Positions 41,601-52,003 of a stretch of 64,000 nt of DNA are shown in pieces (position 1 is the first letter of the stretch; the number at the start of each line of letters is the position of its first letter). The stretch covers positions 14,167,682 to 14,231,681 of the forward strand of contig NC_089275.1 in assembly GCF_963678975.1 (NCBI RefSeq), read 5' to 3'. The DNA is from Dysidea avara (lineage: Eukaryota; Porifera; Demospongiae; Dictyoceratida; Dysideidae). The notes under the pieces are model-generated. The model had not been told where the DNA came from and ran no database searches. It saw only the letters and a program-made list of their open reading frames with translations. A program made the position numbers and the translations under genes.

Positions 41601-44600
41601 TGGCATGGACTTCATTTATCTTACACAGATTAGCTAATCTGGACCCTTTCGTCAAACACCAGAAACAAAGGTATTCAGATAACCATTTATATACATCTTC
41701 TTGTGATTATACTTCATCATTCAGTAGATTACAGATACATACATATCAATACCCTTTTGCCTGATGTAAAGCAGAACTTGTAGCTATACCATGAGAAGCC
41801 ATTGACTCAGGATACTACCTTGAAATACTACCACCAATGTGAGCCTGTTAATATAGGGAGTCAGAAATGTGTAACTAAAACTATGTGAAATGCAAAAATA
41901 CATCTCAGACCAGGTGTTGACTTGATCCCCAACAACATGCAATCTAAGCATGCACCAAAAGAGCCAAAACTCTGCATCCTCTGCAGTACGTAAACACTGA
42001 CTTCTTACCAGTGATGGGTTTTATCACTAGGAACCTGTGAAAAGGCTAAGCCTGTAAACACAGTGAGTTATTGGAAATTGAGAAAGGCATACTAGAGGTT
42101 GAAAATTCAATAAACAAAGTGCACACATCCTATTGCTACATCATGACATTTAGCTAATATTTGTAAATTATAACAGAGGCATCATCAGCTATACAGTTGC
42201 TGATATTCTACAATTACACATGTAGTTTAGTTTGGTGTAGTTTAGTTTAGTGTAGTTTAGTTTAGTGTAGCTTAGTTTAGTTTAGTTTGGTTTAGTGTAG
42301 TTTAGTTTAGTTTACATACAATACAGTAAATGCTTACTTGAAAAAAGCAATATCTGCAGTAGCTACCTCTAAGTTCAGAGACGGTCTTGCCATCAATGAC
42401 AACTGTAAGCCCATAGTCTCCTGTGTGACCAGTAGGCGAGGGACTAATAGAAATTAAATATGTAAACACAACATTGGTATTAGAGTCTAGTTACTGTAGG
42501 ATTTTTATATTATACATTCTCATAATAGGAGACAGCATTATTTAAATATTGTACATTATTATTATCACTATTATTCTCTTATCCAACACCTCTGTAATCT
42601 AGAATACCTCTATAATCTGACACTGTTTTATGTACCAAAGAGACTTTTTCTATGTATATACCTCAATAGTCTGACATCCTCACCAATCTGACACAATTTC
42701 CTTGTCTAAATAAGCATCAGATTATAGAGATATCACTATATGCCACCTTAATTACTGTTTGGTTCAATATATGATTAAATTCATTGTAATGTTCACACAT
42801 ATATATACACCACATACCCAGTATCACACACTATTTGTTCAGTGGTAGTGTAGTAGGTATACACTAGACATTCTACTCTGTTATCACCATTAGTGAAGTA
42901 GACACGATTACCCTTGGTAGGATCATCATAATTGTATTGGTCAGGACTAAATCCTACCGAAAAACCAAAGTGTGAGGTATTTGTGCTATGGATATGATTT
43001 CTGGTTTATATACATAACTACAGTAGACCCTCTGTTATCCAACCCTTATCCTGAAGTTGAGAACAACTATTCTTCTGTTAGAGTATTTTGAGTGTAGGTG
43101 TATGTTCTATTAGAATATTCAACAGAATTCTGTATAAATGTATGGGCTTCAGTTATCTGACCAATTCACTTATCTGAACACTTTTACAAGACCACTGGGG
43201 TTCGAATAACTGAGGGCCCACTGTAGTTAAATAATAGCTGTTACAAAAAATACCATAAACCGTATATATTAAGCATTAAATGAAACTGAGGCTTACACTT
43301 ATTTAACAAAGCAAGCTCATTCATTAGCTAATGATTCAATTCCGATTTTTTTTCCAGGTAATGTATTTATAGTAGCCACAAGTACAGTATACTTAATACC
43401 TCTTCCAGATATGGTTATTCTGGTTCCACCTCCAATACTTCCCAAACGAGGAACAACCGAGTTCACTCCTACAAAATAATTTACCATAATATGTCATGAT
43501 CTTGCGAAAATAATTCTTTAGGAAATGGTATACAGAGTCCACTATCCATGATGTCTGGAGTTCATTGGAGACAGCTGGAAACTTGTGGTTTACCTCTGAT
43601 AAATATATTACATCTACCATTTTCTAAGACATCAAAATACTGGCAATTAGCATCAGTGTTTGAAGTATAAATCATTTAAGAATCAGTGTTAGAAATTAGA
43701 ATGACACATAAGAGCCTTGATCAGCCTCAAGATCTCAGTTTTTATGCATTGTTCTAACACCTCATCTTCAGGTGTTTATACTACAAAGGTGCTAGTTTCC
43801 ATGTGTTTACCATTAGAAAAGATATCGGTATATTAAAAGACTAACTGCTGTTAGCTTTGCTTCTGAGCTCAAATTTGCATAATTATAATTATACAAAAGT
43901 CGTCTGCATAATTATTAAAGAATGCTAAGCTGTAAAAAGGTGTGGCCTTCAAAACTCTGGGCAAAAAGATGCGGATTCAAAGGTGGCAGCCAAGCAATGG
44001 CTTTTTAGCTGAAACTGATAGCATATCCACGGCCATTATTAACATTAACATCATTACAGCTATTTCACCTTTGATTTCTATCCAGACTATTGAAGACTAC
44101 ATCCCTTTTCATAGCATAGCTGTTTTTGTATAAGACTAATGAAAATTGATTACCAGTTTCTTGCTCAGATTTTTGAAAATTTGATGCGGGTGGGTGATTA
44201 TTATTCATTATTTTCCAAAAGCACAACACACATCCCAAACATGAAGATTTCTGATAAAACAGAGAGATCCTTACATAGCTAGCTATATCTAAGAATGTAG
44301 TATAGTAAAGGATGAAAGTAATAAGCTAGCTTATACTACTCCTATAATCACTCTAAAAGCTACAAATTACATAAGTTACTCTTGTATTAAATAGCTAAAG
44401 TATATTACTAATCCATATTAGAATATTCAGCTATTTCTGTAACACTCCATATTAGAATATTTAGCTATTTCTGTAACACTCCATATTAGAATATTCAGCT
44501 ATTTCTGTAACACTCCTAATCAAGTGATTTTCCATTAGAGTATAACCAAGAGTAAATTTACACTTGGTATAACTGATTGCTCTAGTGGAGTAAAAGTGAT

Positions 44601-52003: not shown

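What the first reader, a model, noticed from the sequence alone, without database searches (positions are those of the whole stretch)
43400..52003. CAP/SCP domain spliced onto a fibrocystin-L protein
Seen: five exons encode a signal peptide, a complete CAP domain (HNxxR, GENLY, GHYTQVVW, CNYAPGGN and Cys-rich hinge) and a linker ending at a phase-1 gtaagt donor. The next coding exon to the left is the first IPT exon of fibrocystin-L, which needs a phase-1 donor and has no signal peptide of its own. The 21-exon join is divisible by three with no stop. Known: PKHD1 and PKHD1L1 start with a signal peptide directly followed by IPT domains, and CAP proteins are normally separate secreted proteins. 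Inference: this lineage has a surface receptor with a CAP head, pairing a sterol/lipid- or protease-related module with a G8/PA14 giant. I know of no described member with this head, but I could not search.
Basis: partly seen in the sequence, partly recalled or inferred. Interest (0 to 1): 0.88.

Follow-up and report, generated by a model that had tools for sequence, protein, structure and literature searches.

The report
CAP-headed fibrocystin-L receptor gene family
In one animal genome (probably a sponge) five neighbouring genes each appear to encode a giant cell-surface protein of the fibrocystin-L type whose usual short secretion signal has been replaced by a whole CAP domain, a combination for which the literature searches made here found no report.

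Summary
The 21 exons join into one open frame of 14,211 nt (4,736 aa): signal peptide, complete CAP domain, hinge, linker, IPT/PA14/IPT array, two G8 plus beta-helix units, transmembrane segment, tail. The window gene is one of five neighbouring paralogs on the same chromosome. All five can be modelled with the same 21 exons and identical phases, CAP exons included. The CAP-to-IPT junction is phase 1 with GTRAG donors in 5 of 5, and the linker exon changes only by multiples of three. The intron across the junction is only 350 and 351 bp in two copies and holds no convincing signal-peptide exon in any copy. A CAP-less fibrocystin-L-like gene elsewhere in the genome has a likely signal-peptide exon, joined to its first IPT exon in the same phase and at the same codon. 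So the CAP module sits where that exon sits, which points to phase-1 exon shuffling followed by local duplication. A TATAAA lies 54-64 nt before the CAP start codon in all five. Not shown: a transcript, the protein, its function, or the arrangement in another species (the protein database was off). New variant of a known kind.

The parts
52053..52058 (-). TATAAA box, 55 nt before the CAP start codon
   Evidence: TATAAA starts at -55,-62,-54,-64,-56 in the five paralogs; about 0.7% of random positions in the region have one in such a window
51845..52003 (-). Exon 1: start codon, signal peptide, start of CAP domain (159 nt, ends phase 0)
   Evidence: present in all five paralogs. An in-frame ATG lies 21 nt upstream
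49080..49334 (-). Exon 2: CAP core with His74, GEN, NEISDY, GHYTQ (255 nt)
48871..48980 (-). Exon 3: CAP core VVW...CNYAPG (110 nt)
47738..47829 (-). Exon 4: Cys-rich hinge (92 nt, ends phase 1)
   Evidence: aligns with the GLIPR1 hinge
47482..47541 (-). Exon 5: linker, symmetric phase 1-1 exon (60 nt); donor GTAAGT
   Evidence: 60/60/60/66/63 nt in the five paralogs, donor GTRAG in 5 of 5
43469..47481 (-). Intron 5 (4013 bp; 350-872 bp in the other four copies); contains a CA repeat and a PA14-exon fragment
43400..43468 (-). Exon 6: first IPT exon, phase-1 acceptor, no signal peptide of its own
42818..42953 (-). Exon 7 (IPT1)
42338..42443 (-). Exon 8 (IPT1)
40615..40672 (-). Exon 9 (N-terminal IPT region)
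39356..39431 (-). Exon 10 (N-terminal IPT region)
38851..38904 (-). Exon 11 (N-terminal IPT region)
37269..37336 (-). Exon 12 (N-terminal IPT region)
37114..37153 (-). Exon 13
36182..36252 (-). Exon 14
35278..35388 (-). Exon 15 (IPT, best Pfam stretch residues 453-513)
35039..35125 (-). Exon 16 (rest of that IPT)
34418..34923 (-). Exon 17 (PA14 domain)
33412..34059 (-). Exon 18
32427..32718 (-). Exon 19
27116..27711 (-). Exon 20
16021..26637 (-). Exon 21: 11 IPT stretches, two G8 plus beta-helix units, ectodomain, transmembrane segment, tail, stop
22711..23067 (-). G8 domain 1
   Evidence: 3.9e-33
20200..20565 (-). G8 domain 2
   Evidence: 6.4e-26
16276..16350 (-). Transmembrane segment (about residues 4628-4652)
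   Evidence: hydrophobic stretch read by eye from the C-terminal alignment; no predictor run
1418..1588 (-). Exon 1 of the next paralog, U2 (C4:14169269-14169099)

Best explanation
It is one gene. A fibrocystin-L (PKHD1L1)-type single-pass membrane giant gained an N-terminal CAP-plus-hinge module by exon shuffling at a phase-1 intron. The module brought its own signal peptide and took the place of the ancestral signal-peptide exon, and the new gene was then duplicated to five copies. Shown by sequence: one open 21-exon frame; the same structure and phases in five paralogs; the junction at the same codon and phase as the likely signal-peptide exon to IPT1 in a CAP-less paralog; no convincing rival signal-peptide exon; a positioned TATA motif before CAP exon 1. 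Inferred: the protein is made as one chain and stands on the cell surface with the CAP domain at the outer tip of a long IPT stalk. There the CAP domain, whose His/Glu/Glu/His metal-site motifs and ten cysteines are kept in all five copies, acts as a ligand-binding head (lipid, sterol or a partner protein) for a surface-coat or adhesion receptor, and the fast-diverging tails give the copies different signalling or trafficking.
For: Pfam hits on the spliced product. Five CAP loci and five two-G8 giants on C4 pair one to one in order and orientation. All five can be built with 21 exons of identical phases; E5 is 60/60/60/66/63 nt with donor GTRAG in 5 of 5. Intron 5 is 350 and 351 bp in two copies. 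Signal-peptide-exon scan of intron 5, relaxed so that exon 1 is recovered in 5 of 5 copies: none in U2, U3, U5; one weak in U1 (hydropathy 1.75, donor -0.6); two nested weak in U4 (1.79, donor 1.1). In the CAP-less C11 gene the best candidate on both measures (3.09, donor 1.9) is MRMLLLLVAGALISVASAL, 384 bp before the first IPT exon, spliced at A|GA to ..VTSISPHYGSLEGGT in the same phase, with an IPT call on the joined piece. TATAAA at -54 to -64 of the CAP start in 5 of 5; intron 5 has none in U2 and U5; control with a slightly narrower window: 4 of 5 at E1, 4 of 100 at the other exons, 0.7% of random positions. dN below dS in the CAP core and in the parts of the giant tested. CAP-head and giant trees have the same topology, (U2,U3),U4,(U1,U5). 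In CAP genes on C8 the hinge exon also ends in phase 1 and is followed by a phase-1 Sushi exon.
Against: No transcript or peptide evidence. The five paralogs are related and duplicate as a block, so they are not five independent proofs; two adjacent genes duplicated together would also co-segregate and give matching trees. E5 has an in-frame stop soon after the donor in every copy, so a CAP-only isoform is possible. The linker is weakly constrained (dN 0.30-0.39, dS 0.38-0.69 in the five diverged pairs) and in the hinge dN exceeds dS in two of them on 31 codons. Intron 5 of the window copy is 4 kb and holds a piece of PA14 exon. The C11 signal-peptide exon is itself a prediction: the relaxed scan found four other starting points upstream, two of them nested. 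Sterol binding, metal binding and surface location are untested. Whether CAP was gained here or lost on C11 rests on vertebrate PKHD1L1 also starting with a signal peptide and IPT1 (passages of PMC11043200).
Confidence: 0.88

Rival explanations
1. Two adjacent genes: a secreted CAP protein ending shortly after E5, and a fibrocystin-L-like gene with its own promoter and signal-peptide exon.
For: An in-frame stop follows the E5 donor within 10-31 codons in every copy, and four of five copies have AATAAA/ATTAAA within 600 nt after it. Block duplication would keep two genes together. Intron 5 has weak signal-peptide-exon candidates in U1 and U4 and TATAAA in U1, U3 and U4.
Against: Intron 5 is 350 and 351 bp in U2 and U3 with no signal-peptide-exon candidate even at the relaxed cut-off; no candidate is shared between copies. 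The read-through peptides differ in length while the donor is kept. E6 needs a phase-1 donor, E5 supplies one, and E5 length changes only by threes.
Confidence: 0.06
2. Both forms are made: a short secreted CAP protein by retention or polyadenylation in intron 5, and the full CAP-headed receptor.
For: In-frame stop soon after the E5 donor in all copies; poly(A)-like signals within 600 nt after it in U2, U3, U4 and U5, none in U1.
Against: The extension peptide differs in length between copies and is alike only in part among U2, U3 and U4, not as expected if the short form mattered.
Confidence: 0.2
3. The CAP-headed form is ancestral, and the C11 gene (and vertebrate PKHD1L1) lost the head.
For: Polarity is not fixed by one genome; the fusion could be old.
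Against: The C11 gene (as modelled) and vertebrate PKHD1L1 (passages of PMC11043200) both start signal peptide then IPT, so a gain in the array needs fewer steps.
Confidence: 0.1
4. Assembly or gene-model artefact.
For: U5 has a frameshift in E21; models were built by hand without RNA, with the GT/AG rule imposed.
Against: Four intact frames of 4,698-4,736 codons, and 20 introns with the same phases found in five separate loci.
Confidence: 0.02

Closest known systems
PKHD1L1 / fibrocystin-L (vertebrate stereocilia-coat protein)
   Same: IPT domains, G8 plus TMEM2/CEMIP-like beta-helix units, one transmembrane segment (passages of PMC11043200 and, for the related FPC with PA14, PMC13424714)
   Different: Here a complete CAP domain, hinge and linker precede the first IPT; five neighbouring copies; a tail of roughly 85 residues by eye against 9 in human FPC-L (passage)
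GLIPR1 / CRISP-type CAP proteins
   Same: CAP domain with tetrad motifs and Cys-rich hinge; best solved match is GLIPR1 3q2r, E 2.9e-37
   Different: Those are small secreted or membrane-anchored proteins (recalled); here CAP heads a 4,700-residue receptor
CAP-Sushi genes on C8 of the same genome (L038)
   Same: Same order of CAP core, VVW exon and hinge exon by eye; hinge ends in phase 1 and is followed by a phase-1 module
   Different: Followed by a Sushi exon, not IPT; CAP about 27-41% identical in the longer matching stretches, 58% over one 19-residue stretch
CAP-less fibrocystin-L-like gene on C11
   Same: IPT array and G8, an insert also found in the array proteins; splice junction at the same codon and phase
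   Different: Likely first exon is a 58-nt signal-peptide exon; no CAP match on C11

Membership tests
PKHD1L1 / fibrocystin-L | Many IPT/TIG domains | tested here: met
   2 plus 11 matched stretches
PKHD1L1 / fibrocystin-L | PA14 domain in the N-terminal IPT region (described for FPC in the passages) | tested here: met
   PF07691 E 5.5e-7, 29.9 bits over cut-off 24
PKHD1L1 / fibrocystin-L | Two G8 domains, each followed by a TMEM2/CEMIP-like beta-helix | tested here: met
   G8 in 2 stretches, CEMIP_beta-hel in 2 stretches
PKHD1L1 / fibrocystin-L | Single transmembrane segment near the C-terminus | tested here: inconclusive
   One hydrophobic stretch before the tail, read by eye in 4 of 4 intact copies; no predictor run and the rest of the chain not scanned
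PKHD1L1 / fibrocystin-L | Signal peptide followed directly by IPT1 | tested here: not met
   A CAP domain, hinge and linker intervene. So it is a variant, not a standard member; the C11 paralog, as modelled, meets this feature
PKHD1L1 / fibrocystin-L | Orthology by a family tree with other animals | not tested
   The protein database was off
CAP superfamily | Complete CAP domain over the curated cut-off | tested here: met
   63.9 bits against 21.1, profile 1-117 of 117
CAP superfamily | His/Glu/Glu/His metal-site tetrad | tested here: met
   CRF[AS]H, IGEN, NE(I/T)SDY or YEISDY, CGHYTQ in 5 of 5 copies by motif; tetrad as described for Pry1 (passages of PMC4921858). Metal binding itself not tested
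CAP superfamily | Sterol-binding caveolin-binding motif | not tested
   -

The most novel reading that the evidence does not exclude
A lineage-specific, locally expanded family of CAP-headed fibrocystin-L receptors with conserved heads and diverging tails, arisen by swapping a signal-peptide exon for a CAP module at a phase-1 intron, serving as cell-surface recognition or microvillar-coat receptors (for instance on choanocyte collars), with each copy able to release a secreted CAP form by ending in intron 5.
Probability: 0.25. Interest if true: 0.8.

Novelty: new variant of a known kind. Interest (0 to 1): 0.66.

Why it matters
The ligands of fibrocystin-L and of most CAP domains are, as far as I know (recalled), not settled. 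A receptor in which evolution put a CAP head on the tip of the fibrocystin-L stalk suggests the two act in the same extracellular business and gives a compact, expressible head to test. The five copies and the CAP-less paralog together form what looks like a before-and-after record of phase-1 exon shuffling: a signal-peptide exon and a five-exon module occupying the same splice position in one genome.

Tried and rejected
A first automatic gene finder over-predicted short exons, among them two inside intron 5 of the window copy (45241-45220 and 45081-45029). I rejected them because it predicted no separate exon in intron 5 of the other four copies, although in U3 and U5 it stretched the neighbouring exons into it. 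One of the two is a copy of part of the PA14 exon (win 45095-44976), found in intron 5 of U1 only. Boundaries were then set from shared GT/AG sites. Scripts on the way that failed: one search printed nothing (bad option), one search missed most exons, one search stopped on an error after U1 and U2. One search did not find E5 of U4 by similarity; it was read from the sequence.

A signal-peptide exon inside intron 5 was sought twice. The first scan used a donor cut-off that 14 of the 100 modelled donors fail; its exon 1 control, run with a looser cut-off, still found exon 1 in only 2 of 5 copies. The relaxed scan found exon 1 in 5 of 5, and in intron 5 one weak candidate in U1 and two nested ones in U4 (hydropathy 1.75-1.79 against 2.09-2.87 for the exon 1 controls and 3.09 for C11).

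Searches that gave nothing: prokaryote genomes for exon 21 (11 pattern matches, none confirmed). Viral contigs gave two distant CAP proteins at 36% identity, not followed. NCBIfam had no model for the CAP head. Papers: CAP domain + fibrocystin 0; PKHD1 + Porifera 0; PKHD1L1 + sponge 9 papers, of which I read passages only of PMC13424714, where the sponge hit seen was medullary sponge kidney, and judged the other eight by title and abstract start; fibrocystin + sponges 3, by title and abstract start unrelated. Searches gave cut lists (for example 15 of 60, 8 of 169), seen as titles, counts and abstract starts only.

Full report
Setting. The window is C4:14167682-14231681 of a 550.8 Mb, 108-contig genome without a name; its intron-split animal-type genes make it a eukaryote.

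Observation. The join of 21 exons is 14,211 nt, one frame, 4,736 aa and a stop. Pfam on the spliced N-terminal 1,198 residues gives a full CAP domain (63.9 bits, cut-off 21.1), two IPT stretches and PA14. Exon 21 gives 11 IPT stretches, two G8 and two CEMIP-type beta-helix stretches. The best solved relative of the CAP head is GLIPR1 (3q2r, E 2.9e-37), aligned through the hinge. The tetrad motifs are present in 5 of 5 copies, and ten CAP/hinge cysteines line up in all five.

The key test: paralogs. A genome-wide search with the CAP profile scored 35 candidates and gave 20 matches: 10 on C3, 5 on C4, 1 on C6, 4 on C8 (counts are lower bounds). The G8 profile gave 13: ten on C4, two per gene, and three on C11. 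The five C4 CAP loci and five C4 giants pair off, each CAP lying upstream of a giant on the same strand, the fifth pair on the other strand. I read C4:13990001-14250000, found exons 1-6 by similarity except E5 of U4, which was read by eye, and modelled all five genes. Each can be built with 21 exons, and the running phase is the same at all 20 junctions. All 100 donors are GT; acceptors were required to be AG by the search. Frames are intact in four copies (4,736, 4,720, 4,724 and 4,698 aa); U5 stops early in exon 21 (3,968 aa), and a 742-codon open frame in another register continues beyond.

The junction. E5 is 60, 60, 60, 66 and 63 nt, always divisible by three; its donor is GTAAGT, GTGAGT, GTGAGT, GTGAGA, GTGAGT; E6 starts GAGTG in four copies and AAGTG in one. 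Intron 5 is 4013, 350, 351, 735 and 872 bp. Reading through the donor gives 10, 12, 31, 25 and 11 further residues, alike in part among U2, U3 and U4. A scan of intron 5 for a start codon, hydrophobic stretch and phase-1 donor, at a cut-off that recovers exon 1 in 5 of 5 copies, gave none in U2, U3 and U5, one weak candidate in U1 and two nested weak ones in U4, none shared (the stricter first scan gave U4 only).

The CAP-less paralog. C11 carries a fibrocystin-L-like gene with IPTs and G8 and an insert, also in the array proteins, that looks cupredoxin-like by recall but has no Pfam call in the array protein. In the 3.7 kb before its first IPT exon the relaxed scan gives six candidate starts; the one with the highest hydropathy and best donor is the nearest, C11:545230-545287, MRMLLLLVAGALISVASAL (a nested start lies 6 nt on), donor gtgagt, followed by a 384-bp intron and ttgtag|GAGTGACTTCG (one search printed 385). 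The junction codon is A|GA, the same codon, phase and place as E5|E6 in U1-U4 (A|AA in U5). So the CAP module, itself ending in the symmetric 1-1 linker exon E5, occupies the position of this exon. A tblastn search with the CAP-bearing N-termini showed no CAP in C11:542001-555000, the part of its output that was printed, that is 3.2 kb upstream of the exon and beyond, and the genome-wide CAP search listed no C11 match at E 0.001. The rest of the C11 gene was not modelled.

Promoter. TATAAA lies at -55, -62, -54, -64 and -56 from the CAP start codon in five copies whose upstream sequence is otherwise poorly alignable; intron 5 has none in U2 and U5, one each in U3 and U4 and five in the 4-kb intron of U1. 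In a control with a slightly narrower window, 4 of 5 copies have it at E1, against 4 of 100 over the other 20 exons and 0.69% of random positions. The copies are related, so this is support rather than a probability.

Selection and history. Between diverged copies (five pairs), dN over dS in the CAP core is 0.06-0.09 over 0.21-0.35, and in the parts of the giant from E6 to the ectodomain 0.05-0.29 over 0.31-0.92. The linker is looser (0.30-0.39 over 0.38-0.69). For the hinge dS is too low to use: in the U1-U2 and U1-U5 pairs dN exceeds dS on 31 codons. The transmembrane-tail part is the most divergent large region, 50-55% identical in three pairs, 92% in U2-U3. Head and giant give the same five-leaf topology, supports 0.78-1.0, as expected of one unit but also of block duplication.

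Where the module came from. Two CAP genes on C8 show, by eye, the same exon order, a hinge exon ending in phase 1, and then a phase-1 Sushi exon (PF00084 E 1.2e-7 for the one of the two that was scanned). So CAP-hinge appears to have been joined to other modules at phase-1 introns more than once in this genome.

Function. Inferred only: a tall membrane glycoprotein (65-75 NxS/T sequons in the four intact copies) with a CAP head. The CAP domain of yeast Pry1 binds cholesterol in a Mg-dependent way (passages of PMC4921858), and GLIPR1L1, a CAP protein, binds sperm IZUMO (title and abstract start of PMC6824042). Fibrocystin-L is part of the stereocilia coat (passages of PMC13424714, and PMC11043200). 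I rank a ligand-binding head on a surface-coat or adhesion receptor first, at about 0.4 for that functional step alone.

Novelty. The exact pair of terms 'CAP domain' and 'fibrocystin' occurs in no paper of the library, 'PKHD1' with 'Porifera' in none; in the cut lists no listed paper holds both PKHD1L1 and a CAP term. The library lacks most subscription journals, and no protein database could be searched, so the fusion may already sit unremarked in annotation of this or other species.

Noticed in passing
L038 (C8:2215001-2221000), about 2048-3080 and 3444-5450: Two tandem CAP genes with a phase-1 Sushi exon after the hinge: a second CAP mosaic in this genome.
   Followed up: partly
C3:4299847-4327252 (loci L001-L008): Ten CAP matches in single open frames without stops, four in a frame of 675 aa and three in one of 531 aa; unlike the intron-split C4 genes.
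   Followed up: no
window 47738-49334 and the same exons in the other C4 copies: CAP exons 2-4 have lower dS (0.04-0.35) than the rest of the giant (0.31-0.92) between the same diverged copies: possible gene conversion of the head.
   Followed up: no
window 45095-44976: Intron 5 of the window copy holds a fragment of the PA14 exon (91% identical over 32 residues to copy U3), absent from intron 5 of the other four.
   Followed up: partly
window 28645-30581: Minisatellite of about 30/61-nt units in the intron between exons 19 and 20.
   Followed up: no
C4:14008285-14044000 (copy U5): Fifth copy on the other strand with a frameshift in exon 21 and an open frame of 742 codons beyond it: recent pseudogene or assembly error.
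   Followed up: partly
C-terminal tails of U1-U4: Tails diverge strongly; U2-U4 share EYYNE, U1 has other tyrosines (DYTT): possibly different adaptor binding (motif reading from recall).
   Followed up: no
intron between exons 14 and 15 of U5: A reverse-transcriptase-like fragment (VPQGSVLGPLLFALYINDLP, label from recall) was picked up by the gene finder.
   Followed up: no
L041, L042 (viral contigs): Two viral contigs encode CAP proteins about 36% identical to the head.
   Followed up: no
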